The notes beneath the pieces are model-generated. The model saw nothing but the letters and a program-made list of their open reading frames with translations, had not been told where the DNA came from and ran no database searches. From an uncultured Clostridia bacterium (GTDB lineage Bacteria; Bacillota; Clostridia; Christensenellales; Aristaeellaceae): a stretch of 52,655 bases of DNA. Location of the stretch: contig CAMVHE010000014.1 in NCBI GenBank assembly GCA_947167215.1, positions 1-52,655 of the forward strand, written 5' to 3'. Below, one piece after another: positions 22,560-40,349 of the stretch (position 1 is its first letter; every line of letters begins with the position of its first letter). Made by a program: the position numbers and the translations under genes.

Positions 22560-25500
22560 ATGACCAAAAGATTCCTGTCCCTGGCCTTATGCATGGTGAT
22601 GGTTCTGTCCATGATGGCAGTACCGGCTACCGCGGAAAATAAGGTCTACTTTACCTCCGATTACGCAAGTAAAGCAGAAGCTCTTCAGGCCGGCCTTGAG
22701 CTGAACGTGGAAATTGCACAGGAAGGCATGATCCTGTTTAAAAACAACGGTGCCCTGCCTCTCCAGAAAGGTGCAAAGGTCAGTCTGTTTGGCTATGCAG
22801 CCTACAATCCCAATGCCGGTGCCAGCATGAACGGCGGCGATGCCTCTGCGGGCGCTGCAATCGCTCAGGCAAACGTGGTTTCCAGCATGAAAGATGCAGG
22901 CTTTGAACTCAATCCCTCCCTGGAACAGACTTTCACCGCGCTGATTGCTGAGGGTGCAACTTCTGACTGGGACATGATGTATGCCTACCGTGCTGTATAT
23001 CCCTATTGGGAAAACAGCTTCGCTGAGTATGGCGATGCGGCTCTCATCGTGCTTCGTGGCGGAAATGATCCTGCAGCCGTCCATTCGCTGCAGTTCGACA
23101 AGGTTCAGATGAGCATGATCGACTATGCCGCTGAACACTTCGAGAATGTCATCGTTCTGATCAACAACGTCTCCGTAATGGAAATGGCGGCGCTGCAGCA
23201 GAACGATAAGGTTGACGCCATCCTGAACATCGGAGAGGGCGGCGACAACGGCTTTGCCGCAATCGGCCCCATCCTTTGCGGTGAAGTGAATCCCTCCGGC
23301 CGTACGGTAGATACCTGGGCCGTGGACCTCACAAAGAATCCCTCCTATGCCAACTTCAATGTGAAGACTGCAGCCAACGCCCATTCCGAGGACGGTGCCG
23401 GCACCAAAACCGGCTATACCCAGTTCACCGTGGACGGCAAGCCCGTCAACACCTGGGAAGTTGGCTACGAAGAAGGCATCTATGTGGGATATCGTTACTA
23501 TGAGACCCGCGCATTTGAAGAAGCCAAGGCCGGAAACGAAGGCTGGTGGGCTGAGAATGTGGTCTATCCTTTCGGTTATGGTCTGAGCTATACCGAGTTT
23601 AAGTGGGACGTAAAAGCCCCCGAGCTTGAAACCATCACCAAGGATGACACCCTGACCTTCGATGTAACCGTAACCAACGTCGGCTCTGCCGCCGGCAAGG
23701 ACGTAGTAGAACTTTACTACACCGCGCCTTATGGCAAAGAAGCCACCGGCAACGATACCGTCATCGAAAAGAGCTATGTGGTTCTCGGCGACTTCGCCAA
23801 GACCAAAGTCCTTGAGCCCGGCGAGAGCGAGACCGTGCAGCTCGTGATCGATGTGAAGGACATGGCTTCCTACGACAACGTAACCGATAAGACCTACGTG
23901 CTGGATGCTGGCGAATATGCCATTCATATCGCCCGCGATGCACATCTGAACGGTGATATTGCAAACACTTATACCGTTGCTGAAAAAGCACTTTGCTCTG
24001 CCTCTGTAGGCGGTGCAGAAGTCACCAACCAGCTGGACGATGTGACCGATGGTTTCGCGTCGGAAGGCTATGCACTGCTGAGCCGTGCTGACTTCGCCGG
24101 CACCATGCCGGACGCTTACACCGAATACAAGGAAATCAGCGCTGAAGAATATGCTACGTATGCATATGACGATGCGAAGTTCAACGCCTATTATGATGCG
24201 GATGCCATTGGCACTGTAGAAGTGGCAGATGCTGCAAACCGTCAGGGCGATACCTATTCCATCGTACTCGCTGATCTCGTCGGTGCACCTGCAGATGATC
24301 CCCGCTATGATGAACTGGCAAAGCAGCTGACGCTGGACGAGCTTATCGAACTGGTCAACTTCGGCGGCTTCAATTCTCATGGAATCCCCTACATCGGCAA
24401 ACCCTATTCCCGCGACACGGATGGCCCGAAGGGCTGGACCGGTAACTACACGGACACCAATGACCGCTTCAATTACTTTGCTTCCGAGCCCATGATCGCA
24501 GCTACCTTCAACAAGGACCTGCTCTTCCGTATGGGCAAGATCATCGGCGATCAGGGCATCTGGGGCAATTCCACCGTCGCCAGCGGCATCGTGTACTCCT
24601 ACACCGGCTGGTACGGACCTGGCATGAACATCCATCGTTCTCCGTTTGACAGCCGTGCCACGGAATATTATTCCGAAGATCCGCTGCTCACCGGCGTCAT
24701 GGCTGCCAACGTCAGCCGCGGCGCCCTCGAAAAGGGCTGCTATGTAACCCTCAAGCACTTCGCATTCCACAACGACGGCGGCGGTGCCACCACCTACCGT
24801 ATGGGCGGCATCGGTTCCGGTTCTCCCAACGATGGTCTGGCTGCCTGGATGACGGAACAGACCGCTCGTGAAATCTATCTGAAGGGCTATCAGATTGCTG
24901 TCGAAGACGGCGATGCCCGTTTCGCCATGGGTTCCTTCACCCGTATCGGCAAGACCTGGTGCGGCGGCAGCTATGCCATCAATACCGCCATCACCCGTAA
25001 CGAGTGGGGCTTCAAGGGCGCTGTGGTCACCGACATCACCCTGTACTGGGCCTGCAATGCCTACCAGCTGATTAAAGCCGGTTCCGACATGATGCTGGAT
25101 GCCTTCGTCTACGGCCTCAATTTCGGCGTATTCCTTGATAAGGATACCATCCTGGCCATGGATGACGCGAGCCGCAACATCACCCTGTACTGCCTGCAGA
25201 ATACTGCCAAGCACATTCTGTACATGGTAGCCAACTCCAACGCCATGCAGGTGCCTGCCGGCGCAAAGGTCCGCTACAGCTCAACCATCGAAGTGGATGA
25301 TGAAGAAGTCGATCTCGCGCTTGAAAACGCCAAGGTTGGCGAGGCTTATACCTCCATTGATCTGGCAAATGCCAGCCTGAACACCTATTATGCTTATGCT
25401 CCTATTTCCTACAGCGCTTCCGGCCTGCCTGAAGGCCTGGTGCTGGAGAATGGTGTGATTACCGGTACACCCGCTGCTGCCGGCGAATACACCGTGACCA

Positions 25501-25562
25501 TAACTGCCGAGGCAGAAGGCTATGCGCCTGCTTCCATCGAGCTTCCTCTGGTGGTTGAATAA
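22560..25562 (+). CDS. Secreted, circularly permuted GH3 beta-glycosidase with C-terminal Ig-like domain
   Basis: A 1,000-residue exported glycoside hydrolase family 3 enzyme. The signal peptide ends near ATA|EN (25). Domain order is inverted relative to most GH3: the (alpha/beta)6 domain comes first (from EIAQEGMILFKNNGALPL), then the fibronectin-like domain after YPFGYGLSY (about 335-470), then the TIM barrel (about 575-880) with LKHF, and the nucleophile D825 in GAVVTDI. This permuted order is known from some ruminal Firmicutes beta-glucosidases. The last 90 residues resemble a putative Ig domain (SASGLPEGLVLENGVITGTP). AAGGAGG precedes the ATG. It likely trims oligosaccharides outside the cell; specificity is unknown. 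Confidence 0.9.
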   Translation: MTKRFLSLALCMVMVLSMMAVPATAENKVYFTSDYASKAEALQAGLELNVEIAQEGMILFKNNGALPLQKGAKVSLFGYAAYNPNAGASMNGGDASAGAAIAQANVVSSMKDAGFELNPSLEQTFTALIAEGATSDWDMMYAYRAVYPYWENSFAEYGDAALIVLRGGNDPAAVHSLQFDKVQMSMIDYAAEHFENVIVLINNVSVMEMAALQQNDKVDAILNIGEGGDNGFAAIGPILCGEVNPSGRTVDTWAVDLTKNPSYANFNVKTAANAHSEDGAGTKTGYTQFTVDGKPVNTWEVGYEEGIYVGYRYYETRAFEEAKAGNEGWWAENVVYPFGYGLSYTEFKWDVKAPELETITKDDTLTFDVTVTNVGSAAGKDVVELYYTAPYGKEATGNDTVIEKSYVVLGDFAKTKVLEPGESETVQLVIDVKDMASYDNVTDKTYVLDAGEYAIHIARDAHLNGDIANTYTVAEKALCSASVGGAEVTNQLDDVTDGFASEGYALLSRADFAGTMPDAYTEYKEISAEEYATYAYDDAKFNAYYDADAIGTVEVADAANRQGDTYSIVLADLVGAPADDPRYDELAKQLTLDELIELVNFGGFNSHGIPYIGKPYSRDTDGPKGWTGNYTDTNDRFNYFASEPMIAATFNKDLLFRMGKIIGDQGIWGNSTVASGIVYSYTGWYGPGMNIHRSPFDSRATEYYSEDPLLTGVMAANVSRGALEKGCYVTLKHFAFHNDGGGATTYRMGGIGSGSPNDGLAAWMTEQTAREIYLKGYQIAVEDGDARFAMGSFTRIGKTWCGGSYAINTAITRNEWGFKGAVVTDITLYWACNAYQLIKAGSDMMLDAFVYGLNFGVFLDKDTILAMDDASRNITLYCLQNTAKHILYMVANSNAMQVPAGAKVRYSSTIEVDDEEVDLALENAKVGEAYTSIDLANASLNTYYAYAPISYSASGLPEGLVLENGVITGTPAAAGEYTVTITAEAEGYAPASIELPLVVE

Positions 25563-26231: not shown

Positions 26232-26254
26232 TCGGAATTTTCCTCCGGCCCTTT

Positions 26255-26292
26255 GGCCCGTGTTTTGTGCTGATGCGCACAGGGCACGGGCC
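26255..26292 (+). terminator. Hairpin after the carbohydrate-binding gene
   Basis: An 8-bp stem GGCCCGTG/CACGGGCC with an inner weaker stem, followed by TTCTTCATCTT. The poor T tract suggests an attenuator or mRNA-end stabiliser more than a full terminator. Confidence 0.45.
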
Positions 26293-26336
26293 TTCTTCAT
26301 CTTAGATCACACAGAAAGCGAGATGAATTCAGCTTC

Positions 26337-29300
26337 ATGAACAAAGAAAAGGCAAAAAAACAGGGAAAAAGCCGTCGCGTAAAGGTGTGGGCCATCATAA
26401 CTGCTCTCGTTCTGATTCTGGCCGTCGCCGTTAACGTGGTTCTGCTGACGGTGCCGATTGCCGGCAATAGCTTCAACCTACTGTTCGGCGGCCCGCGTGC
26501 CATTCTGGACGAGGGTGAAGGCTCCGGCATTGGTTACGAGCAGGAATTTTCCACCAAAGATGCAGCACTGAAAGCTGCGCAGGACTTCGTAATTGAGGTT
26601 GAAAAAGAAGGCATAACCCTCCTGAAGAATCAGGAGCAGGCTCTGCCTCTGGCAAGCGGTGCCAAAGTCAGCGTATTCGGAAAAAATTCCGTAAACATCG
26701 TGACTTCCGGTTCCGGTTCCGCCTCCAGCAATTCCTCTGCGGCCGGCAATACTCTTTATGACAGTCTCTCAGCAGCCGGTATCAGCTACAACTCCACCCT
26801 GAAAGCATTCTATGAGGATTCCGGCAAGAGCGGTTCCGGTCGTCCTGCCAACCCGGCCATGACCTCCGGGCAGCGTCTCTCCGGCTATGCCACAGGCGAA
26901 ACTCCCGTATCCTCCTACACTTCGGATGTAACGGCAAGTTATGCACAGTACAACGACGCCGCCATCGTGGTCATTTCCCGCATCGGTGGTGAAGGCTTCG
27001 ACCTTCCGCGCACCATGGCCACCGATTTCACCTATGGCACCCCGGTAGCCGGCGCGGAAGCTGCAGACAGCCATTATCTTGAACTGGACGCCAATGAAAA
27101 AGCCCTGATCGCCCATGTAAAGGAAAACTTCTCCAAGGTCATCATCCTGCTGAATGTCGGCACCACCATGGAAATGGGTGCAATTCAATCTGACGCAGAT
27201 GTGGATGCAGTGGTATGGATGGGATTCCCCGGAGCTACCGGTGTCATGGCCGTCGGCCAGGTGCTGACTGGTAAAATGACGGACGGAACTTCCTTCAGTC
27301 CTTCCGGACACACGGTGGATACCTGGGCAGCAGATTTTACGCAGGATCCCACCTGGTTCAATACCGGTGTCTATGGCAGCGAATTCGGAAACCGCTATCT
27401 GTATAACGGCGAAAAGACCGACTATGCCTTTGTCAACTACATGGAAGGCATCTATGTCGGCTACCGCTATTATGAGACTCGCGGATACGAGGAAACCCGC
27501 GCAGATGCCGCTTCCACCTGGTACCAGGACCACGTGGTCTATCCCTTTGGCTACGGCCTGTCCTACACCACCTTTGACTGGGACGTGACCTTCGGCAAGG
27601 CGGACGGCAGTGCAATAACCGCCGACGATAAAATTGACGTCACCGTAAAAGTCAAAAATACCGGCAGTTATGCCGGTAAGGATGTGGTGCAGCTGTACTA
27701 CAGTGCACCCTATGATTACGATAATCCTGCCATTGAAAAATCCTACGTGGTGCTGGGTGACTTTATCAAAACAAAGCTGCTTCAGCCCGGTGAGGAGCAG
27801 ACCGTTACCCTGTCCCTGAATGCCTCCGACATGAAGTCCTATGACTATGCCGATGCCAATGAAAACGGGTTCAAAGGCTACGAGATGGACGCAGGCGATT
27901 ATACCTTATTCGTCTCTGCAAACGCACATGAGCCCAGAGCAAGTGCCTCTTATCATCTGGACGCAGCCGTGCAGATGGCAGAGGAAAAAGACAAATGGGG
28001 CAAGGAAGTTGCTGTCACCAATCAGTTTGATGATGTCAGCGCCGGCATCTTCGGCAACTGGACCTATGAAAGCTTCATTAGCCGTAAGGATTTCGCCGGC
28101 ACTGTTCCCACTGCCTATATCAGCGACAGCGATCGCACCCTGACGGATGCCCTGATGGATGCTCTGAAAGCCTCCATCAAGCGTAAGTACAGCGCCAGCG
28201 ATGCAGGAGAGCCCTGGGAGGTAACCGGGGTAACCTATGGAGACCCGGTCAACAGCGGTCTCTCCCTCAAAGGAATGCTATCCGATGCAAATGGCGAATT
28301 CGTCGGCTCTGTGGACTATGAAGATCCCCGCTGGGAAACTCTGCTGAATGAAATCACCCTGGATGAAATGAAGACACTGGTGGGTTACGGTGCATTCCGT
28401 ACCAACCCGGTAAACGGGCTGGACGGTGTGGTAAACAAGCCCATGACCACCGACGCAGACGGACCCTCCGGTTTTACCAGCTTCCTCTCTGAATCTGTCA
28501 TCTATAACACCTGTGCCTATCAGGCAGAATGCATCATGGGCGCCACCTGGAATGTAGAACTGGCCGAGCGCATGGGTGAACTGGTCGGTGAGGAAGGCCT
28601 GATCGGAAATGAAAAAGGGGATGGCCTGCCTTATACCGGATGGTATGCTCCGGCCGTCAACATTCACCGTTCCCCCTTCGCAGGACGCAACTGGGAGTAT
28701 TACTCCGAGGACAGCGTACTTTCCGGCAAGTTTGCCGTCAAGGTCATTGAAGGTGCGGCTTCGAGAGGCGTATACTGCTATGTGAAGCACTTTGCCGTGA
28801 ATGATCAGGAAACTGACCGTGAATACAACGGTATCCTTGTATGGGCCAATGAACAGGCCATGCGCGAAATCTACCTGAAACCTTTTGAGATGTCCGTCAA
28901 GAACGCGGATGTGAAGGTCAACGGAATGATGTCCTCCTTCAACCGTCTCGGCATGCGCTGGGCTGGCGGCAGCTATCCGTTGCTGACCGCAGTACTGCGC
29001 AATGAGTGGGGCGCCAGAGGTCCGGTCATCACGGACTACAGCCTTAACACCTATACTCATGTAGATGAGATGATCCGCGCAGGCGGCGACCTGTTCCTGA
29101 CTCAGGATGCCAAGACCTTCAATAAAGACGACGATGCCACACAGATCACACTGCTGCGCAACGCCACAAAGAACATTCTGTATGCCGTAGCCAACAGCAA
29201 CGCCATGGGCGCAACCATCATCGGTTACAAACGCCCGATCTGGCAGGACGCAATGGTCGGTATCGACATCGGACTGGCAGTACTGCTGGCGGCCTGGGGT

Positions 29301-29568: not shown

Positions 29569-30945
29569 TTATTTTTCCGCGGTTCGAATCCACCCCAGGG
29601 TTTGCCTGAGCTGCTCATCTTTCGATATTCCGGCAAGTCGCAGCTTGTGCGCATAAGAAAGCGCCTCGCTGAACAAAGGTCCCGGTTCCATACCGGCCTC
29701 GATCAGATCTCTTCCCTTGAGATAGGGGTGGCTCATTCTTTCCTTATATACTCCAAGCATTTCATGCAAATAAGCTTCGGTTTCCTCATACTTTTGCGCA
29801 AGTACAGCGCGGTCCGTTCCGCCGCCGACCCGTCCCATGTGATCAGCCTTTGCAAGAAGAAGCATGTCCTCCGGACATACAGAACGATCAAACATCTTCA
29901 TGTAAGATTTGATGTGCGATCCCATACTGACCTTCTGGTTTGGTTCCATATGCAGTTCCGTCATGTTCATAACATAGTCAGACAGCTTCACCTCGGTTGT
30001 GATCCGGCCAAGAAAGCTCTGAACAAGGGGAAGACCTGCTTTTTCATGCCCATAGGCGTGGATACCATTGTCGCACTCGCTCGTTGCGACCGCTTTTCCA
30101 AAATCGTGGCATAGAGCGGAAAGCATAAACCAAAGCGGCTCCGCCGCCATATCTCTCATTTGCGCAGCTTCATCCAGCACCTGCATGGTATGGGTCCATA
30201 CATCTCCCTCCGGATGGAATTTGGTGTTCTGCGGTATTCCAATCAGGTTTTCAACCTCCGGGAACCAGACAGACAGCTGATTCATTTGTCTGAGATTTTC
30301 AAAGAACACCGATGGTTTCGCTGCTTTCAGCATCGCCTTCTCCAGTTCCATCATGATCCGTTCTCCGGTCAAAGAGCCTGTATCTACAGCAGAGGCGACT
30401 TTTTTCGTTTCTTCCTCAACCGAAAAACCAAATCGTGCAGCAAACTGTGCAGCACGAAACACCCGAAGCGGATCTTCCACGAAAGACTGCTCATTTACAT
30501 GGCGGACCCTGCAATGGATAATGTCTTCTTTGCCCCCGAAAAAGTCCAGAACTTCACCGGTCAGCACATCCTGCATCAATGCATTCATGGTGAAATCTCT
30601 TCTTCCTGCCGCTTTTTTCTCGCCGACAAAAGGATCTACAAATACTTCAAAATCCTTTTGTCCGCGGCCTGCAGCCTTTTCTGCCCGTGGCATGGCGATA
30701 TCCAGCTGATAATGACGCAGTCCCATTATGCCGAAGCTGGCTCCCATTGTGAGACGCTCGCCAAGCGTATCCAGGATTTCCTCAAGACACTGCACGGAAA
30801 TTCCATGGACCTCAATATCAACATCCTTATTCTCTCGGCCAAGCAGCTGATCACGGACATAGCCGCCCACATAATAGGTTCTGCCGCCTTTATGCGAGAC
30901 TGCTGCGGCTATCTTTTCTGCCATCTCAATGTTTTTATCTTTCAT
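29569..30945 (-). CDS. cca: CCA-adding tRNA nucleotidyltransferase with HD domain
   Basis: A 458-residue class II CCA-adding enzyme/poly(A) polymerase family member, which builds or repairs the CCA end of tRNAs. Seen: GGYVRDQLLG (28-36), catalytic D41-V-D43, the RRDFTMNAL motif (115-123), EDPLRVFRAAQFAARF (157-172), and an HD phosphohydrolase domain (H280-D281 in LCHDFGKA). The ATG at 30945 gives eight-base spacing from GGGAG; an ATG two codons earlier is too close. It shares a transcript with the RlaP-like gene. Enzymes with an HD domain can also remove 2',3'-cyclic or 3'-phosphate ends. Confidence 0.88.
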   Translation of the reverse strand: MKDKNIEMAEKIAAAVSHKGGRTYYVGGYVRDQLLGRENKDVDIEVHGISVQCLEEILDTLGERLTMGASFGIMGLRHYQLDIAMPRAEKAAGRGQKDFEVFVDPFVGEKKAAGRRDFTMNALMQDVLTGEVLDFFGGKEDIIHCRVRHVNEQSFVEDPLRVFRAAQFAARFGFSVEEETKKVASAVDTGSLTGERIMMELEKAMLKAAKPSVFFENLRQMNQLSVWFPEVENLIGIPQNTKFHPEGDVWTHTMQVLDEAAQMRDMAAEPLWFMLSALCHDFGKAVATSECDNGIHAYGHEKAGLPLVQSFLGRITTEVKLSDYVMNMTELHMEPNQKVSMGSHIKSYMKMFDRSVCPEDMLLLAKADHMGRVGGGTDRAVLAQKYEETEAYLHEMLGVYKERMSHPYLKGRDLIEAGMEPGPLFSEALSYAHKLRLAGISKDEQLRQTLGWIRTAEK

Positions 30946-30969
30946 TCCCATTTCTCCCTGTCATGCCTG

Positions 30970-31740
30970 TTACCTGTTCAGTTCAGAGAGGAAGAACGCA
31001 TCCAAAGAATCCCAATCTCTTTTTTCTTCTTTCGGCATTTCCTCAACAAGACAACCTATCTTCTCATTCTCTTCTCTCAGGAACAGATCAATATCCGCTA
31101 CATGTTCCATCTTTGCCTTCTCAGGCGCATTTTTCTTCCGTTCAAGGATATATTCCAGCGATGGCTTTCTCAAACATGGTAAAACCGCCTCCTCCAATTC
31201 GGAAAACAGCACAGGAGGTGCATAGTTTTCCCGCTCAATCCAGATGCAGGAAAGAACGGACCTCAGCGCATAAAAGTACTTCTTTGGACTTACCCGGTCT
31301 CCATCAAACACATCTCTGATATGTCTGGATGCAATTTCATGATAATAATGCAGCATGCGCTCCTTTGAGAAGTATGCCCGCATCAATGGCATGATTCGTC
31401 TCTTAAAATCTTCTCCATAATAGCACACAGGCGAACCGATCCAGTCATAAAGGCCTGGATTTGAATTATGCAGCAGCCTCAAGGCCTTGCTCAAATCCCA
31501 TCCCGATACATCCCATGTTGCATCAATGGGGCTTTCTATTACATCCCGCTTTTCCTCAAGCTTCAGGTATTCCGTTTGCGGCCTCCTGTAGATAAAGCGC
31601 ACATCAAAATCACTGTCTGGTGAAGCAACGCCCCAGGCACGGCTGCCAGATTCTGCCGCATATAAAACGGTCACACTGCTGCTTTTTTCTATTTCTCGCA
31701 GTTTAAGCGGAACAAGTTGATTCATTTCTCCCTGCGTCAT
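30970..31740 (-). CDS. RlaP-like DNA polymerase beta superfamily nucleotidyltransferase (COG3541 type)
   Basis: A 256-residue nucleotidyltransferase. The motif GSRAWG (32-37) followed by D42-S-D44-F-D46 is the signature of the predicted nucleotidyltransferases called RlaP (RNA-ligase-associated). They have been proposed from genome context to act in RNA repair. The target is unproven. Start 31740 follows GGGGGA; an ATG eight codons earlier is possible. The gene is directly upstream of cca and probably cotranscribed from the promoter at 31861-31889, which links it to tRNA 3'-end metabolism by context. Confidence 0.75.
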   Translation of the reverse strand: MTQGEMNQLVPLKLREIEKSSSVTVLYAAESGSRAWGVASPDSDFDVRFIYRRPQTEYLKLEEKRDVIESPIDATWDVSGWDLSKALRLLHNSNPGLYDWIGSPVCYYGEDFKRRIMPLMRAYFSKERMLHYYHEIASRHIRDVFDGDRVSPKKYFYALRSVLSCIWIERENYAPPVLFSELEEAVLPCLRKPSLEYILERKKNAPEKAKMEHVADIDLFLREENEKIGCLVEEMPKEEKRDWDSLDAFFLSELNR

Positions 31741-31860
31741 AGCAAATCCCCCATTACCATCCAATGCTTATGCCCCGGCCGCACTCCTCATTGCTGCTGT
31801 GCCTCCGGTAATCGATGCACGCACTGATGCCGTGCCCCGGCGCAGACCGGCATGATGTCA

Positions 31861-34549: not shown

Positions 34550-37213
34550 TTAACATTCCAGAAAGAAATTGTTGTCCACCAGGCTGACGGCATTCTCATC
34601 CAGGCTCTTGGCCATGGTGAGAATCACGTCGGCGTCTTCCCAATTCTTCACCAGCTCCGCCTGCTGCCCTTCCAGGACGCAGTTCAGATAATCCTTGAGA
34701 GAGAACATTGCTTCCGCCGCTTCTATGGCAGGCCGGCTGGTCCAGTCTCCCCAGCCGTTCTGATTTGGCTGGCCCACGAACCGCACGAACCGGTTCTGCA
34801 CGTCGATGATGCCGTAGAACAGGTTGTTGGTGTTCTGGGTCAGGGCGTGGGTGAAGAAGCAGTTGGCCGGCTCGTAATGCCTGATCTCCTTGCCGATCTG
34901 ATCCACCGCCATCAGGCCCACATAGCAGGTCTCGATGCCCTTGAAGGAATGCTTGCCGCAGAACAGATTCACGTTGGCGTAAATCTCCCGGATTGGGGCG
35001 GACAGATCGATATCGATATATTCCGCCGCATCGCTGTGGGTCACGTCCCCGGAGTGTACCACGCCGCCGCTGCGGAAGTCCGCGTTCCAGCCCACATGCA
35101 GGTCTTCGCCTTCCGTGGTTTTGCCGGCCGCGTGCAGGTCCACATCCACCCGATGCGGATCGTTCCAGTACACGAAGAACCGGACGAACTTTGCCTCTTT
35201 GGGAATCCTAAAGGAAATCCCGCTGCGGATGTAGCCGCCGTCCTGGGAGCGATCCTCGGTTTCCAGGGTGGAATGGGCCAGGTCGAACTGGTCCATATCC
35301 AGATAGACCCGCTTGCCTTTCAGCTTCGTTTCCGCCTGCCGGAAGTGCGCCTTGAACGGCGATTTTAGCACCTCCACGGTCTCGGCGTCATGCCGCGCGG
35401 CCCGCAGCTCGGCTGCATGGCGCTTCTCCAGCGCGGCCAGTTCCGCATCCCGCCTTGCGGGAAGGGTGCGCATGGCTTCGCCGTACCGGGCGACCTCCCA
35501 GGCAAAATCCTGCTCCAGGTTTTCCCGACGCTTCTTTTCCCAGGCGTCGATGGCTTCCAGCTCCTCCGCATAGCGGGCTTCGATCGCCACGCAGGCTTCC
35601 CGGTACTGCCGGTCACCTTCCGCCCGCGCCTGCTCGATTTTCGCCTGCAGCTCCCTGGCTTCTTTTTCCAGGCGGTCTGCTTTTTCCTTTAGCTCCTCCG
35701 GGCTATCCCGGAACGCCAACACATACAGGTCCTCGCTCAGATCGGCGTTGGCGCTCTTGCGGATCCACGCGCGCTTGGGAGCCCGGGGCAAGTCGGCGAT
35801 CCGCTTTAGGATGCGCTCCCATCTGCTCCATTCCTTTACCTTGGCTTCCAGGCTCTTTTGCAGCTCTTCCATAGGCCTATAAGCATGCTCCCGGGCCTGA
35901 TTCTCCGGCTCATCCCGCCATTTCCAGGCAGCCTCATTTCGCCGTTTGTCAGCTCCCTGCTTAAGCCGTTCGCACATTTCCGCATATCTTGGCGCCATGC
36001 TGTGCTGCTCCTGCCAATATTTCTGCTGGCAGGCGTCTATTGCCCGGCGGTGCTTTTCTTCCATTTCCCCGCTGCGCTTCATCAGCGTGCGGATGGTCTT
36101 GACAGTGAGATGACCGCTGATCATGCCCGCATGGGGAAGGAGCGCTTCCTCGATGGATTCCTGGCTGTAATCCAGGCTCAGCAGCCGGTTGATCATGCGC
36201 AGCATGAAGCCGGGCCGCTCGGCGTAGTGCGCCAGCGCTTCAGGGCTGTGATCCCGGAGCAGCGTTTCGCCTATGCCGTGCCAGGACAGCAGTTCGCCAT
36301 TGCGCAGGGCGCGCACGGCCTCCTTGTGCTGGGGGCTGCGGGAATACTGGTTGTAGTCCAAATGCTGCAGGACAAGCAGGTTCCGCTCCCGCAGATGCAG
36401 GGACTGCATCATGTTCGTGCACAGATTGCCCACCGTGTAGCTTTCCAGCAGCTTCACCAGCAGCTTCTTTTCGCTGGTGGTCAGGTGCCAGCGCTTTTCG
36501 CTCAGGTAATCCCGAGCGCAGCGGAACACGTCGCCCGTGTGGGCGCACACCGCGTGCAGCGTCAGCAGCGCGGTGTTCCGGTCGGAAAGGCCCATGAGCA
36601 GCGGGAACAAAAGCTCCAGGTTTTCCTTGAAGCGCACCTTCAATCCCCGCATCTGCTCAGCTGTGCACAGTGGCGCGCATTCCAGCGCCAGCTCCAGCTC
36701 CGGATTGGTGAGCCGCTCCCGGCGGTTCAGCAGCGCTTTGAACACCGCGATGGGCGCTTTCTGCGCTGCCACCAGGTCAATGACCCGGCAGGCCATGAGG
36801 GCCGAGTCCTTCTTCGTGCGCTGGGGGCCGTTGTCATCCGGCAGCCAGCCCTTGCTTGCTTCCTTGCCCAGCAAGCTCTCCAGGCCGTAGGTGGTGAAGT
36901 AATGGATCATCTGATGCAGCCGGAATTCGGCCTCGTCCATTTCCATCACCTGCTGGGGGAAACCGGGATACATGGGCTTGTCCTTCACATTGGGCACCAG
37001 GGCCTTGACCGCCTCATAGAACCCTTCCAGGGAGGGGCTCACGGACAGCCGCAGAATATCGGCGGGCCGCAGGGTAAAGCCCAGGGACTGCAGATTCTCA
37101 TTCACCGTGACTGCTTCGCACAGCATATCATCCGTCATTTCAGCCAAATTGCCCGGCTGATAGGACACCATGCGCAGTTCGCTCAGGAGAAGCGCGTGAA
37201 ACTGTTCAGTCAT
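34550..37213 (-). CDS. Large helical/coiled-coil protein with C-terminal TerD-like domain
   Basis: An 887-residue cytoplasmic protein with no signal or membrane segment. Residues 1 to about 430 are helical and repeat-like (HEAT-like pattern); about 430-640 is a highly charged coiled coil (runs of E, K, R, A). The last 240 residues look like a TerD-type beta-sandwich: a strand RFFVYWN, then DVDLHA, SGDVTHSD and AAEYIDIDLS, resembling the acidic Ca-binding strands of TerD. Similar domain sets occur in the MXAN_6230/SCO0854 group. AAGGAGG precedes the ATG. With an XRE regulator and a Ro60-like vWA protein upstream it probably forms a stress-response unit. The function is unknown. Confidence 0.7.
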   Translation of the reverse strand: MTEQFHALLLSELRMVSYQPGNLAEMTDDMLCEAVTVNENLQSLGFTLRPADILRLSVSPSLEGFYEAVKALVPNVKDKPMYPGFPQQVMEMDEAEFRLHQMIHYFTTYGLESLLGKEASKGWLPDDNGPQRTKKDSALMACRVIDLVAAQKAPIAVFKALLNRRERLTNPELELALECAPLCTAEQMRGLKVRFKENLELLFPLLMGLSDRNTALLTLHAVCAHTGDVFRCARDYLSEKRWHLTTSEKKLLVKLLESYTVGNLCTNMMQSLHLRERNLLVLQHLDYNQYSRSPQHKEAVRALRNGELLSWHGIGETLLRDHSPEALAHYAERPGFMLRMINRLLSLDYSQESIEEALLPHAGMISGHLTVKTIRTLMKRSGEMEEKHRRAIDACQQKYWQEQHSMAPRYAEMCERLKQGADKRRNEAAWKWRDEPENQAREHAYRPMEELQKSLEAKVKEWSRWERILKRIADLPRAPKRAWIRKSANADLSEDLYVLAFRDSPEELKEKADRLEKEARELQAKIEQARAEGDRQYREACVAIEARYAEELEAIDAWEKKRRENLEQDFAWEVARYGEAMRTLPARRDAELAALEKRHAAELRAARHDAETVEVLKSPFKAHFRQAETKLKGKRVYLDMDQFDLAHSTLETEDRSQDGGYIRSGISFRIPKEAKFVRFFVYWNDPHRVDVDLHAAGKTTEGEDLHVGWNADFRSGGVVHSGDVTHSDAAEYIDIDLSAPIREIYANVNLFCGKHSFKGIETCYVGLMAVDQIGKEIRHYEPANCFFTHALTQNTNNLFYGIIDVQNRFVRFVGQPNQNGWGDWTSRPAIEAAEAMFSLKDYLNCVLEGQQAELVKNWEDADVILTMAKSLDENAVSLVDNNFFLEC

Positions 37214-37706: not shown

Positions 37707-38177
37707 TCAAGGTGCTTGAGCCCTGTCGGGCTCCTGCCGGGGGAGGAGGTTTTGTCCTTTCTCCCTGTCGACGTGCATAGGATAACACCGACAATCCAGT
37801 CTGTCATTAAACCTGTAGTTGAATGCTGAACTTTCAGGTGTGCAGGTTTTCTCCATATTCCACACGCCTTCATGATCCACCCGGTATAATCGGCAGCCAG
37901 ACCATGAGGTATCCTCTGCCAAAAAATGAGAGACCCCCTGGTCCTCATACACCAGGAGGTCTTCCATGGACACCCGCAGGAGCCTGGCCAGGGCAAGCAG
38001 GTTGTCCACCGTGGGCAGGCACTCGCCGTGCTGCCACTTGTATATGGCCTGCGGGTACTCAAACCCGAAATAGTCCTGCAGGTCCCGCACGGTCAGTCCG
38101 GCCCGACGGTGCTGCCGTTCAATGCAGCGGCCGGTCTCCGCCAGATCAATGACCGGATATGCAGTTTGCGCGTACAT
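37707..38177 (-). CDS. XRE-type helix-turn-helix regulator with atypical tail
   Basis: A 156-residue protein. Residues 10-75 form an XRE/HTH_3 domain (ERQHRRAGLTVRDLQDYFGF, then YKWQHGECLPTVDNLLALA and MEDLLVYE), a type common in Clostridia. The last 75 residues are Cys/Arg-rich, match nothing I recognise and overlap GC-rich hairpins, so the true end may have been lost by a frameshift. AAGGAGG precedes the ATG. It lies 46 bases after the Ro60-like gene and could regulate it and the TerD-like gene. Confidence 0.75.
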   Translation of the reverse strand: MYAQTAYPVIDLAETGRCIERQHRRAGLTVRDLQDYFGFEYPQAIYKWQHGECLPTVDNLLALARLLRVSMEDLLVYEDQGVSHFLAEDTSWSGCRLYRVDHEGVWNMEKTCTPESSAFNYRFNDRLDCRCYPMHVDREKGQNLLPRQEPDRAQAP

Positions 38178-38223: not shown

Positions 38224-39678
38224 TCAGCCAGCCTTGATCTTTGCATACCGCTCACCGCCGATGACATTCATCATGTTGGTGTAAGGATCCATCTCGCCGG
38301 ACATGACCTGGGAGAAGATGCGAGGCGTACAGCCGGAAACCAGTGCACAGCCCTGCTCATTCATCTTCACGGGCTGCTGCTCGTTCCGTGACTGGACATT
38401 CCAGAATACCACCTGCGGCAGCCTGTAGCCGTTTTGCGCATAAAGCTGCTTTGCATGCTCAAAGTTTGACAGAGATGCGTTCTTTGCGCATATGTCAAAC
38501 TCCATGTCAGAGACAATATAAAGCCTTGATGGCAGTTCCTTCTGGGGTACATGGTTTTCAACCGCTGCCCTCAGGATCAGCTCAAACACTGCCTGCAGAT
38601 CTGTATTGGCGCACTCATCGAAAGAACGGCAGTACCGGACCTTCTCCACAATATCCCTGCCCCTGATCTCCACAAGCCGCGGCGTCATCGAGAAAGTGAT
38701 AAAGTGGTTATGAAACGCGCCATGAATCCGCTCTGCAAAGAAGATCGCCAGGGACTGTGCTACCACAGCGGGCCTCGGATTGCCATACCAGTACATGGAG
38801 CCGGAGCCATCCGCCACAACAAGTGCGTTCTCACCGCCGGTATAGTCCTCCAGTGCAGACCAGGTCACGTTCAGAGCCTCGCGCTCATCCTCCCGCGCCT
38901 CATATGCGGAAGCCACAATCTCATAGGGCATCAGCGTGCCGGTATGAAGCACAGTCCTGCCGGCCTTCACCTTATTCATAAACGTCTGATACCGCTCATA
39001 ATCATTCCGCAGAAAAGCCCTGCGGTACTTGAACATTGCCTTGGATGGCTGCTTTGCATAATCAAACGTGTAGTCGCGCTCACGAAGGCTGTTCTCAATG
39101 ATGCGAATCTCTGCCCTCAGTGCAGACAGCGCCTTGCGGTACTGTGCATCATTCATGCCGAATGCACGAGAAAGCTGCTTTGCCCTCCGAACAGTCTCCG
39201 AATTGGAAGCATTTACGGAAGGCAGCCACTTGCCGAGCAGAGAAACCGACTCACCATGTTCAAGAGCCTTCATATCTGCCAGAAACTGCTGGTACAGCAC
39301 AGCCTCTGCCTCCCGGCCCGCAGGCGTGTCAAGCAGGACAAGCAGGTCATCCCAGCGGCCATACTCTGCAATGTATGAGAGATTGCGTACCAAAGCAGTC
39401 TTCTCATTTTCTGCCAGCCCCCTGAGAATCGTACGGAATACAGTCCGCTCGCCAAGACCTCCCCGGATGTCACGGGCATAGAAGAGAATCTTCATTGCCA
39501 GATCCGGATTCTCGACATAGGCCCGCAGGAAACGATTCTCGATCTCAGCTTTGCTCTGCGTGCGCAGCGCTCCAATGGTCGCAAACAGATCCAGACAGTC
39601 AGAACCGGTGGTGCGCGGAGTAACCGCGCCATTCTCGGTAACAGTCCTGTCTGCGATCTTCTTCAGAAAAAACAGCAT
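38224..39678 (-). CDS. Ro60-like protein (TROVE/DUF2828 superfamily) with C-terminal vWA domain
   Basis: A 484-residue protein. The helical-repeat part carries TGSDCLDLFATIGALR, FYARDIRGGLGERTVF (67-82) and EYGRWDDLLVLLDT, the hallmarks of DUF2828/TROVE-type Ro proteins. The C-terminal von Willebrand A domain has the MIDAS motif D290-G-S-G-S and a second MIDAS Asp in IVSDMEFD. Ro60 proteins bind Y RNAs and misfolded or damaged small RNAs in a ring; the DUF2828 branch is poorly studied. ATG 39678 follows AAAGGAGG. The leader on the same strand contains a structured RNA and tRNA-like elements, the expected kind of ligand. An RNA-binding role is inference from family and context. Confidence 0.8.
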   Translation of the reverse strand: MLFFLKKIADRTVTENGAVTPRTTGSDCLDLFATIGALRTQSKAEIENRFLRAYVENPDLAMKILFYARDIRGGLGERTVFRTILRGLAENEKTALVRNLSYIAEYGRWDDLLVLLDTPAGREAEAVLYQQFLADMKALEHGESVSLLGKWLPSVNASNSETVRRAKQLSRAFGMNDAQYRKALSALRAEIRIIENSLRERDYTFDYAKQPSKAMFKYRRAFLRNDYERYQTFMNKVKAGRTVLHTGTLMPYEIVASAYEAREDEREALNVTWSALEDYTGGENALVVADGSGSMYWYGNPRPAVVAQSLAIFFAERIHGAFHNHFITFSMTPRLVEIRGRDIVEKVRYCRSFDECANTDLQAVFELILRAAVENHVPQKELPSRLYIVSDMEFDICAKNASLSNFEHAKQLYAQNGYRLPQVVFWNVQSRNEQQPVKMNEQGCALVSGCTPRIFSQVMSGEMDPYTNMMNVIGGERYAKIKAG

Positions 39679-39710: not shown

Positions 39711-39806
39711 AACAAGGCACGCTGATCTGCTGGAAGCGGCCGCACTTAAGCGGGACCGTTCCGAATACTTAAAAGGTATTTGCATTTTTTTGCTGTACGT
39801 GCCTTT
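39711..39806 (-). ncRNA. Structured leader RNA with a tRNA-Lys anticodon-arm mimic, Y-RNA-like candidate
   Basis: On the - strand an 8-bp closing stem (AAGGCACG 39805-39798 with CGTGCCTT 39721-39714, then TGTTTT) encloses two hairpins. The first, 39780-39764, is AATAC-CTTTTAA-GTATT: a 5-bp stem with a 7-base loop identical to a tRNA-Lys(UUU) anticodon loop. The second, about 39762-39732, is a bulged GC hairpin that shares AACGGTCCC with the anticodon region of the neighbouring tRNA-like gene. It ends 32 bases before the Ro60-like ATG. A Ro-type Y RNA is plausible, but no Ro-binding consensus has been shown. Confidence 0.5.
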
Positions 39807-39809
39807 CAA

Positions 39810-39885
39810 TGGTGCACCTGACAGGCTTCGAACCTGCTCCTCACGGTTTAAGGGACCGTTACTCTCCCGGTTGAGTTACAGATGC
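39810..39885 (-). tRNA. tRNA-like gene, Lys(CTT)-type anticodon with C33
   Basis: A 76-nt cloverleaf on the - strand: acceptor GCATCTG/CAGGTGC (one T-G), T8 A9, D arm ACTC/GAGT, anticodon arm ACGGT-CCCTTAA-ACCGT, five-base variable loop, T arm GCAGG-TTCGAAG-CCTGT, discriminator A, encoded CCA. The anticodon would be CTT (Lys), but position 33 is C instead of the near-universal U. It begins four bases after the CCA of another tRNA-like element and ends four bases before the structured leader RNA. It could be a working tRNA, a relic or a tRNA mimic. Confidence 0.65.
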
Positions 39886-39889
39886 ATAA

Positions 39890-39967
39890 TGGTGCGTCTT
39901 CAGAGACTCGAACTCTGAATGTCCGCATTAAAAGTGCGGAACCTTACCTGTTTGGCCATAGTAGTAA
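39890..39967 (-). ncRNA. tRNA-Lys(UUU)-like element lacking a matching 5' acceptor strand
   Basis: On the - strand: D-like arm GGCC...GGTT, perfect anticodon arm CCGCA-CTTTTAA-TGCGG (39939-39923), T arm CAGAG-TTCGAGT-CTCTG, then AAGACGC-A-CCA. The 5' bases that should pair with AAGACGC (GCGTCTT) are absent; TTACTAC is there instead. A true tRNA could not form, but the anticodon and T arms are intact. Confidence 0.6.
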
Positions 39968-39992
39968 CCTCTTCAGGAGCCGAACCCCGAAC
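39968..39992 (-). other. Third tRNA-like 3'-end relic (T arm)
   Basis: On the - strand TTCGGG-GTTCGGCT-CCTGAA followed by GAGG resembles, base for base with a one-base gap, the T arm and acceptor of the element at 39890-39967. No anticodon arm is recognisable upstream. It suggests the array arose by tandem duplication of a tRNA. Confidence 0.45.
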
Positions 39993-40349
39993 CTACTCCG
40001 TGACCATTTCCCGCTGTCCGTGCTTTTTGCCTTTCGGCAAGTATAAGATAACACAGCCTTTGAACCGCTTCCCGGCAAAAAAGTTGCGAAGTCAGAGAAT
40101 TGTTTGCTCCCATGTCAGCTCTTCTTCAGCCTCCTGCAATAAAAAAAGGAGCGCTGTGATTCGCTCCTCACTTTCCGGACTTGAAGTTGTAGACCGGCTG
40201 ATCTGCTTCACGATCCCTGCTGTGTGTGCAAGTAAATAGTATGTATGGTTTTTATCGTACTTATCTAGATCATCTACTTCTGCTCGAGTTATTTGACTGA
40301 ACTTTTCAACACGGAACTCTTTCTTGCCTTTCAGACTGATGGTATTATT
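39993..40349 (-). pseudogene. Unrecognised protein remnant with in-frame TGA
   Basis: One - strand frame reads 85 codons (containing KGKKEFRVEKFSQITRAEVD and YLLAHTAGIVKQ) to TGA at 40094-40092, and continues in the same frame for 32 codons (NFFAGKRFKGCVILYLPKGK) to TAG at 39995-39993. Composition is protein-like on both sides of the TGA, but no start codon is visible and the 5' side runs into IS-end-like repeats. No family recognised. Confidence 0.35.
40141..40167 (-). terminator. Possible - strand terminator upstream of the tRNA-like array
   Basis: GGAGCG (40167-40162) pairs with CGCTCC (40153-40148), followed by seven T. It lies inside the unrecognised frame, so either the hairpin or the frame is incidental. 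Confidence 0.5.

What the first reader, a model, noticed from the sequence alone, without database searches (positions are those of the whole stretch)
39711..40000. Array of lysine-type tRNA mimics directly upstream of a Ro60-like gene
Seen: on one strand, in less than 300 bases, a T-arm relic, a tRNA-Lys(UUU)-like element with no matching 5' acceptor strand, a cloverleaf with Lys CTT anticodon, and a hairpin whose stem-loop is a tRNA-Lys(UUU) anticodon arm. All precede the ATG of a TROVE/DUF2828-vWA gene. Known: Ro60 proteins bind Y RNAs, and bacterial YrlA RNAs contain tRNA-like modules. Inference: the array may supply ligands or decoys for the Ro-like protein, perhaps reporting on attack at the tRNA-Lys anticodon, a known target of PrrC-type anticodon nucleases. 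I know of no described Lys-mimic array of this kind.
Basis: partly seen in the sequence, partly recalled or inferred. Interest (0 to 1): 0.9.

Follow-up and report, generated by a model that had tools for sequence, protein, structure and literature searches.

The report
Ro60-linked array of tRNA-mimicking Y RNAs
Just upstream of a gene for a Ro60-shaped RNA-binding ring protein lie small RNA elements that probably fold into handles displaying pieces of transfer RNA, a layout shared by many gut clostridia and phages and possibly used as bait or protection against enzymes that cut transfer RNA.

Summary

The last hairpin sits in a Y-RNA-like handle (stem-NNACAGCAA ... stem'-UUG). Such handles lie upstream of 61 of 77 clostridial-set relatives and 20 of 80 phage-set relatives. 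Modules on them include permuted tRNA bodies, cloverleaves and isolated anticodon stem-loops; 200 of 347 units show none of these. Anticodon loops are far above chance, confirmed on a second module set (15 vs 0.28). Under the strict pattern all 46 have U36 or A36, Lys-UUU commonest; looser patterns include G36 and C36. In many relatives WYL regulators and RtcB flank the array.

Best reading: a Ro60-type RNA-repair locus whose multi-member Y-RNA array displays tRNA parts. Decoy or bait for tRNA-cutting enzymes is the leading mechanism, but inferred. No expression or binding data exist for the window. Key Y-RNA papers were not readable here, so novelty is provisional.

The parts
40069..40090 (-). 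Promoter/operator-like core TTCGCAACTTTTTTGCCGGGAA
   Evidence: Its core lies upstream of the DUF2828 gene in 51 of 72 genome loci, against 2 of 72 on the other strand, 0 of 72 downstream, and 0 of 80 viral loci. Window place. Function inferred.
40041..40055 (-). -10-like stretch TGTGTTATCTTATAC
   Evidence: Place. Similar TGnTA-type stretches follow the core at similar spacing in the rows (by eye).
39976..40024 (-). Truncated Y unit A: 5' stem AGCACG, degraded motif (GACAGCGG), T-arm-like relic 39998-39976; no matching 3' strand found
   Evidence: Sequence, places; intact counterpart in contig C24. Reading as a remnant is inferred.
39890..39965 (-). tRNA-Lys(UUU)-like element with CCA; acceptor stem mostly unpaired
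   Evidence: Rfam 39.7 bits; 3 of 7 acceptor pairs.
39810..39885 (-). tRNA-Lys(CUU)-like cloverleaf with CCA, C33 (loop CCCTTAA)
   Evidence: ARAGORN, Rfam 53.1 bits, sequence. The same C33 loop in L049, L051, L054 and L055; L049 and L051 are close copies.
39713..39806 (-). Y unit B: AAAGGCACG, T, ACAGCAA (39796-39790), module, CGTGCC (39721-39716), TTG (39715-39713)
   Evidence: Fold z -2.85; aligned with 13 relatives; handle statistics; places.
39764..39780 (-). Anticodon stem-loop mimic AATAC-CTTTTAA-GTATT (Lys UUU) inside unit B
   Evidence: fold; conserved; L059 has changes on both sides of two pairs; family statistics.
38224..39678 (-). DUF2828/DUF7788 protein, 484 aa, Ro60 fold (ring plus vWA domain)
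37707..38177 (-). Small HTH protein downstream; membership in the system uncertain
   Evidence: Weak HTH_26/HTH_3, below the Pfam cut-offs. A relative of it (56% over 77 aa) lies downstream of DUF2828 in 4 of 79 genome loci.

Best explanation
This is the RNA arm of a Ro60-type ribonucleoprotein locus. The DUF2828/DUF7788 protein is a Ro60-fold ring. The array upstream holds Y-RNA-like units, each a handle (stem-NNACAGCAA ... stem'-UUG) that probably docks on the ring and carries a module; many modules copy part of a tRNA: an isolated anticodon arm, a cloverleaf, or a permuted body of T-arm, acceptor and D-arm. Shown here: the anatomy, its recurrence, the fold, the excess of anticodon loops, and in relatives the neighbouring WYL regulators and RtcB. 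Inferred: that the RNAs are made, bind the ring, and are held out as decoys or baits that occupy enzymes attacking tRNAs (anticodon nucleases; Lys-UUU is the commonest copied anticodon), while RtcB, for the window copy supplied from contig C24, rejoins what is cut. Identity (Y-RNA array of a Ro60-like protein) about 0.88; decoy/bait mechanism about 0.45.
For: Handles upstream of DUF2828: exact stem plus TTG in 61 of 77 genome and 20 of 80 viral loci, none on the other strand or in the gene; stem partner in 161 of 181 and 111 of 166 motifs against 23-40 and 16-31 with shuffled letters. Reverse test: DNA patterns of the handle alone give 159 viral stretches, 87 with a DUF2828 gene, 97 of 98 such units on its strand; 26 of 50 further records carry the gene elsewhere. 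Ro60 fold: ten best PDB matches are all Ro60/TROVE. Anticodon loops: 31 of 173 modules against 0.57 (maximum 4 of 200 shuffles), and 15 of 118 new modules against 0.28 (maximum 2). RNA-repair setting: RtcB in 36 and WYL-type genes in 45 and 42 of 79 genome loci. For the decoy step: DUF2828 in 682 of 50,697 phage records; anticodon nucleases of host defence attack tRNA-Lys, and phages answer with anticodon-arm variants (PMC11455837 passages; PMC10264068 abstract); [quoted passage not shown]
Against: No transcript, binding or cleavage data for the window. 200 of 347 units have neither T-arm nor anticodon arm by script. Handles with stem also occur at lower rate downstream (4 of 77 genome, 4 of 79 viral loci) and 2-4 kb upstream in phages (3 of 76). 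24 of 50 searched records with handles show no DUF2828 gene (many are fragments). Upstream of G005 and G017 I saw no handle. Profile comparison with TROVE is weak (probability 39.9), and sequence searches of the PDB find no Ro60. In Listeria phage CKA15 the most transcribed non-coding region has no handle. Salmonella YrlA was reported not to be cut by the nuclease active there (PMC7790460), so a bait role is not general. The window copy has no RtcB of its own.
Confidence: 0.5

Rival explanations
1. Tether model, like Deinococcus RYPER: the handle binds the ring and each module recruits a different tRNA-binding enzyme (PNPase, processing or modifying enzymes). The tRNA look is an address tag, not bait.
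For: Known for Deinococcus Y RNA and PNPase (PMC7790460 and PMC8394870 passages). YrlA is a substrate of DusA and TruB (PMC8394870). Units with no tRNA feature (200 of 347) fit tethers of other partners. U36/A36 with A37 would also suit enzymes that modify A37 (recalled, no call).
Against: Does not by itself explain many different anticodons side by side in one array, nor the wide presence in phages.
Confidence: 0.25
2. Sentinel model: the modules are sacrificial substrates. When an anticodon nuclease cuts them, the fragments signal to the WYL regulators upstream, which switch on Ro-like protein and RtcB, as tRNA fragments do for RtcR in Salmonella.
For: WYL-type genes precede the array in 45 and 42 of 79 genome loci; a shared promoter core, on C24 also about 180 b before the RtcB match. 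[quoted passage not shown]
Against: The window copy's next upstream gene is a GntR/FCD regulator, not WYL. The WYL type and the core were not found in the viral loci (0 of 80 for the core). No cleavage data.
Confidence: 0.12
3. Cis-regulatory leader: the structures are the 5' leader of the DUF2828 mRNA, and the protein binds its own leader to control its synthesis.
For: Directly upstream and on the same strand as the gene in the window and most loci.
Against: Arrays of up to 9 units, units downstream of the gene in mycobacteriophage Kahlid, and units elsewhere on phage contigs.
Confidence: 0.1
4. Ordinary or decayed tRNA genes beside an unrelated gene (tRNA cluster or old integration site).
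For: Some interleaved elements in relatives score well as tRNAs (up to 68.5 bits), and phage tRNA clusters lie nearby in CKA15.
Against: Does not explain the handles and their strand bias, the reverse test, the isolated anticodon arms, or the shared C33.
Confidence: 0.05

Closest known systems
YrlA-type bacterial Y RNAs with the Ro60 relative Rsr; rsr-yrlBA-rtcBA RNA-repair operon (Salmonella)
   Same: Ro60-fold protein, adjacent small RNAs with a terminal stem, circularly permuted tRNA-like module in some units, RtcB in the locus of many relatives.
   Different: DUF2828 branch rather than Pfam TROVE; handle with ACAGCAA and UUG; up to 9 units per locus; isolated anticodon arms and whole cloverleaves; WYL-type regulators instead of RtcR. 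The TROVE loci seen here (L202, L203) have another stem sequence (by eye).
Deinococcus radiodurans Ro60 (Rsr) - Y RNA - PNPase (RYPER)
   Different: There the module tethers PNPase; anticodon arms are not mentioned in the passages I could read.
Phage Ro-like proteins (mycobacteriophage 'Ro-like RNA binding protein', PHROG 850; Listeria phage CKA15_055; Ro60 of Thermus phage phiLo, PDB 9l5y)
   Same: The first two are the same protein family; handles lie beside the gene in 7 of 9 loci read. PMC12282133 already suggests Y RNAs near CKA15_055.
   Different: The array structure and the anticodon-arm modules are not described in the passages seen. Whether phiLo Ro60 belongs to DUF2828 was not tested.
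Phage tRNAs resistant to host anticodon nucleases (PrrC, VapC, PARIS AriB)
   Same: tRNA-Lys anticodon arm as the contested site; variation in the anticodon loop (PMC11455837 passages, PMC10264068 abstract).
   Different: Those are working tRNAs; the units here carry tRNA parts on a Ro handle.

Membership tests
Ro60 / TROVE protein | Pfam TROVE domain (PF05731) in sequence | tested here: not met
   Only DUF7788 and DUF2828 over cut-off; no TROVE match in the own genome at E <= 0.001; hhalign probability 39.9.
Ro60 / TROVE protein | HEAT-repeat ring plus vWA domain (fold) | tested here: met
Ro60 / TROVE protein | Binds Y RNA | not testable with these tools
   Needs pull-down.
Bacterial Y RNA | Gene next to a Ro-family gene | tested here: met
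   Window and 61 of 77 genome loci; Ro fold.
Bacterial Y RNA | Stem joining the 5' and 3' ends | tested here: met
   Unit B folds so; stem statistics. The real RNA ends are unknown.
Bacterial Y RNA, YrlA class | Circularly permuted tRNA module (T-arm, closed acceptor, D-arm) | tested here: inconclusive
   Window unit A is a remnant and unit B has another module. Present in C24 (by eye) and by script in 19 of 347 units.
Bacterial Y RNA | Match to an Rfam family | tested here: inconclusive
   Only tRNA (and one Clostridiales-1) matches at gathering cut-offs. Whether Rfam 15 holds a YrlA family was not checked.
rsr-yrl-rtcBA RNA-repair operon | RtcB beside the Ro and Y genes | tested here: not met
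   Window copy: no; the only RtcB match of the genome is on C24, beside the second copy. Relatives: 36 of 79 genome loci.
rsr-yrl-rtcBA RNA-repair operon | RtcA and RtcR | not tested
   No search for either was made; WYL-type genes stand upstream in many relatives.
Functional tRNA genes | U33 and a paired acceptor stem | tested here: not met
   Lys-CUU-like: C33, acceptor paired. Lys-UUU-like: U33, 3 of 7 acceptor pairs. Each fails one of the two; 37 of 37 fetched ordinary tRNAs have U33.
Decoy or bait for anticodon nucleases | Binding or cleavage by such an enzyme | not testable with these tools
   Inferred from mimicry only.

The most novel reading that the evidence does not exclude
A Ro60-type ring carries a library of tRNA parts: each array encodes several Y RNAs that fasten an anticodon arm, a cloverleaf or an elbow/acceptor body to the ring from different sides, so that tRNA-attacking enzymes (of rivals or phages for the bacterium, of the host for the phage) meet a ring-bound copy instead of the real tRNA. 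Clostridia and phages share the device, and the copied anticodons (Lys-UUU first, mostly U36 or A36 loops with A37) record which nucleases matter.
Probability: 0.4. Interest if true: 0.92.

Novelty: new variant of a known kind. Interest (0 to 1): 0.82.

Why it matters
What tRNA-mimicking bacterial Y RNAs do is open. Arrays that carry named anticodon arms make the question testable: the copied anticodon predicts which nuclease or tRNA enzyme should bind. If true, they link Ro60, RNA repair by RtcB and the phage-host fight over tRNAs in one locus that occurs in cultured bacteria and laboratory phages. They also warn annotators: some 'tRNA genes' near phage Ro-like genes are probably not tRNAs.

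Tried and rejected
Rejected: ordinary tRNA genes (see membership). Rejected: a Lys-only array; relatives carry many anticodons. Set aside: a link to the CCA-adding and RlaP genes at 29569-31764, because DnaK and other genes lie between.

Led nowhere: an Rfam scan at loose E-values around the array gave the two tRNA matches plus six sub-threshold matches to mostly eukaryotic or plastid families. PADLOC found nothing for five window proteins. A profile of 43 family members found no Ro60 in the PDB by sequence, nor did the single protein. The Foldseek 'pdb' job was never accepted; the VIA job, a second look at Foldseek's own best 1000, ran instead. The TROVE loci L202 and L203 have ACAGCAA only inside an upstream gene; between the genes they have YrlA-like RNAs with another stem, read by eye, and an upstream ORF that looked WYL-like by eye, untested. 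Looking for known YrlA loci in Gammaproteobacteria was not possible. Five sources on Y RNAs and RNA repair (PMC4201824, PMC10870794, PMC6281776, PMC6047535, 10.1093/nar/gkw722) are not held.

Corrections to my notes: note 2 says 6 of 8 first relatives show handles; on re-reading it is 5 of 8 (window, C24, G038, G006, G064), none by eye in G005 and G017, and G029 was read on the wrong strand. The entry says 'N36 = U or A only'; that holds for the strict pattern. With a looser pattern G36 or C36 occur in 6 of 26 distinct genome modules without a T-arm, 2 of 22 viral and 1 of 4 named-phage ones, and in 2 of 21 genome and 2 of 6 viral modules with a T-arm. The '26+' hybrid units in the entry is an estimate by eye.

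Dropped rows: L047 (its match begins at base 8) was left out of all genome-locus counts, leaving 79; loci with short flanks lower the neighbour counts. One search lists only the first 45 loci. Alignment A4 (16 rows) was replaced by A7 (14 rows): one row's coordinates were wrong and L046 and L051 were left out.

Full report
OBSERVATION. The reported elements are real and on the minus strand. Reading towards the gene: a promoter-like element (40090-40069, with a -10-like stretch at 40055-40041), a truncated unit with a T-arm relic (40024-39976), a tRNA-Lys(UUU)-like element (39965-39890; Rfam 39.7 bits), a tRNA-Lys(CUU)-like cloverleaf (39885-39810; ARAGORN, Rfam 53.1 bits), a closed unit holding a tRNA-Lys(UUU) anticodon arm (39806-39713), then the ATG at 39678. 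The two tRNA-like elements are 57-64% identical to the genome's three ordinary tRNA-Lys genes; one has C33, the other 3 of 7 acceptor pairs. Of the genome's 47 Rfam tRNA matches the four lowest are the UUU-like element and three elements on contig C24; the CUU-like one ranks 41st.

A SECOND COPY. Contig C24 of the same genome has a second DUF2828 gene (81% identical protein), also preceded by tRNA-like elements (43.9, 39.5 and 35.1 bits) and two handles. Its first unit is intact: stem, ACAGCAA, T-arm, acceptor strands closed by a short loop, D-arm, stem (by eye). That is the circular permutation known for a bacterial Y RNA (6CU1; PMC11472068 passages). The window's T-arm relic follows the same 5' stem, so I read it as the remains of such a unit. 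RtcB lies upstream of the C24 array and is the genome's only RtcB match; further upstream is an ORF 46% identical over 411 positions to the WYL representative. The promoter core occurs in that stretch at L001 7898, 9346 and 9485, the first about 180 b before the RtcB match.

THE HANDLE. Relatives show a repeated form: a 5-7 bp stem, NN, ACAGCAA, a module, the other strand, UUG. I fetched 80 genome loci (of 150 confirmed) and 80 viral loci (of 478 confirmed) and used 79 of the genome loci. ACAGCAA in the 1.5 kb upstream: genome 181 in 77 loci, 118 with exact stem and TTG, in 61 of 77 loci; viral 167 in 80 loci, 26 with stem, in 20 of 80. Other strand: 3 and 9 motifs, none with stem. Gene body: 5 and 14, none. 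One letter shuffle: 3 (one with stem) and 5 (none). Lower but real rates elsewhere: 1.5 kb downstream, 18 and 63 motifs with 4 and 4 stems; 2-4 kb upstream, 11 and 38 with 0 and 3. With a looser test, an exact 6-nt partner exists for 161 of 181 and 111 of 166 motifs, against 23-40 and 16-31 when the stem's letters are shuffled (20 runs each). Up to 9 units were found in one locus (L064). In the 14 aligned copies of the window's unit B the stem hardly varies, so it gives no covariation; the anticodon arm changes on both sides at two pairs in one copy, L059.

REVERSE TEST. Two DNA patterns of the handle alone, scanned over viral contigs, gave 159 stretches with 173 units. 87 of 159 stretches hold a DUF2828 gene by tblastn; of the 98 units in these, 97 are on the gene's strand. 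Of the 72 stretches without one I searched the whole records of 50: 26 have the gene elsewhere, 24 show none; many are fragments. One of the 72 had a profile hit of its own (L278).

ANTICODON ARMS. Over all hairpins with a 7-nt loop in the 1.3 kb upstream, YTNNNRA loops number 54 (genome) and 60 (viral) against shuffled means of 3.25 and 4.6 (maxima 5 and 7 of 20 runs); on the other strand 11 and 3. Some viral ones may be ordinary phage tRNA genes, so I turned to modules inside handles. Of 173 non-redundant short modules without a T-arm, 72 have a 7-nt-loop hairpin (shuffled mean 21.4, maximum 34 of 200 runs), while loops of 4, 5, 6, 8, 9 and 10 stay within the shuffled range. 31 modules have an anticodon-type loop (0.57, maximum 4): C32 in 31 of 31, A37 in 30 of 31, N36 = U 23, A 8, G 0, C 0. 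Several further loops differ at position 33 only (CATTTAA three times, CCGTTAA twice, CAGTTAA, CAGTAAA, CCTCTAA). On 118 further modules from the pattern scan, less than 80% alike to those used before: 7-nt loops 46 (18.4, maximum 29), anticodon-type 15 (0.28, maximum 2), all U36-A37-A38: CTTTTAA 10, CTGTTAA 4, CTGCTAA 1. U36-A37 is the setting of t6A and A36-A37 that of i6A (recalled, no call). Looser patterns and longer modules include G36 and C36, for example Glu in L041. Limit: 200 of 347 units have neither T-arm nor anticodon arm by script; 68 have an anticodon arm only, 29 an anticodon arm then a T-arm, 31 a T-arm only, 19 a permuted body.

OTHER TOPOLOGIES. A script for 'T-arm plus fully paired 7-bp acceptor with ACAGCA inside' gave 47 rows. 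Many are overlapping, redundant or long chance pairings. The clear ones by eye (L139, L146, L148, L149, L150, L161, L179, L185, L197) are tRNA bodies of about 109-122 nt in which the anticodon arm is drawn out into a closed, permuted handle; in L185 the hairpin GTGTC-TTGTAA-GACAC is followed by TAACAGCAA. So the handle is fixed at the anticodon side in some units and at the acceptor side in others (for example the His-ATG-like unit in G006).

INTERLEAVED tRNA-LIKE ELEMENTS. 34 of 79 genome loci have at least one ARAGORN hit upstream of the gene (after the promoter core where one was found), 80 in all; some may lie inside handles. U33 in 71 of 80 and encoded CCA in 16 of 80, against 37 of 37 and 37 of 37 for the ordinary tRNAs fetched from this genome. 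Hosts differ in whether CCA is encoded, so the second comparison is weak. The C33 Lys loop of the window recurs in four relatives, two of them close copies.

NEIGHBOURS. Among 79 genome loci: two WYL-type gene clusters in 45 and 42 loci, 43 and 40 of the genes upstream on the same strand (representatives match PF13280 and PF25583); RtcB in 36 genome loci plus 1 viral (32 genes downstream on the same strand, 6 upstream; representative matches PF01139). Promoter core upstream in 51 of 72, against 2 of 72 on the other strand. Succinimonas amylolytica, a gammaproteobacterium, has promoter core, handle and gene, which suggests horizontal transfer. DUF2828 is patchy: 8 of 100 genomes including the own one, 7 over the cut-off; 3 of 28 other genomes of the genus. 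In named phages 682 of 50,697 records match; in the listed rows many are annotated 'RNA-binding' or 'Ro-like'; 7 of 9 loci read have handles. In mycobacteriophage Kahlid three units follow the 'Ro-like' gene, one a permuted tRNA by eye.

OUTSIDE EVIDENCE. PMC12282133 (passages and section 8): in Listeria phage CKA15 the protein CKA15_055 was matched by HHpred to Rsr and found in purified particles, and the authors suggest that nearby abundant non-coding RNAs may be Y RNAs. The region they describe at 26,236-26,727 has no handle; I find three handles at 25,290-25,552, directly before the gene, and cannot tell whether these are among the other active regions. [quoted passage not shown] YrlA itself was not cut.

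HOW IT LIKELY WORKS. Shown: anatomy, recurrence, fold, operon in relatives. Inferred: transcription, processing, docking of the handle on the ring, and purpose. The anticodon modules fit decoy or bait best, because what is kept is the anticodon loop that anticodon nucleases attack, and because phages and Clostridia share it while an anticodon arm on a handle is of no evident use to translation. Position-33 variants could be uncut decoys; this is a guess. Tether and sentinel models remain open.

NOVELTY. Bacterial Y RNAs, their permuted tRNA module, phage Ro-like proteins and the RtcB link are known. I saw no paper describing multi-unit arrays or isolated anticodon-arm modules in the listings of nine searches of an open-access library, some of which were cut to 15 or 20 rows. 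The main Y-RNA papers are not held, so absence in print is not shown. I rate it a new variant of a known kind.

Noticed in passing
L043, about 800-1030 of the 1300 b upstream of the DUF2828 gene: A tRNA-Lys-like gene whose anticodon loop seems to hold roughly 150 nt of structured insert.
   Followed up: no
L084 (Succinimonas amylolytica DSM 2873) and L079: Gammaproteobacteria with the same promoter core, handles and DUF2828 gene as Clostridia; suggests horizontal transfer.
   Followed up: partly
window 29569-31764, minus strand: CCA-adding-type nucleotidyltransferase and RlaP genes 18 bases apart, an RNA-repair-like pair about 6 kb downstream of the Ro-like gene.
   Followed up: partly
window 34550-37213, minus strand: 887-aa protein without a Pfam or NCBIfam match, weak PHROG 33734 hit over residues 635-814.
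   Followed up: no
L209 4896-5138 (Cronobacter phage S13): Annotated 'tRNA-Ser' of 121 nt and 'tRNA-OTHER' of 113 nt downstream of DUF2828 may be tRNA-handle hybrids.
   Followed up: no
Listeria phage CKA15, CKA15_055: The Ro-like protein is reported in purified phage particles (20 peptides, 57% coverage; PMC12282133), which hints at a role at the start of infection.
   Followed up: no
L202, L203 (TROVE loci of genomes G209, G277): Canonical TROVE genes with YrlA-like RNAs that seem to contain a Lys-UUU anticodon arm (CTTTTAA) ahead of the T-arm; read by eye.
   Followed up: partly
L063 286-1041: A Thg1 (tRNA-His guanylyltransferase) gene upstream of the DUF2828 locus, one more tRNA-repair enzyme nearby.
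   Followed up: no
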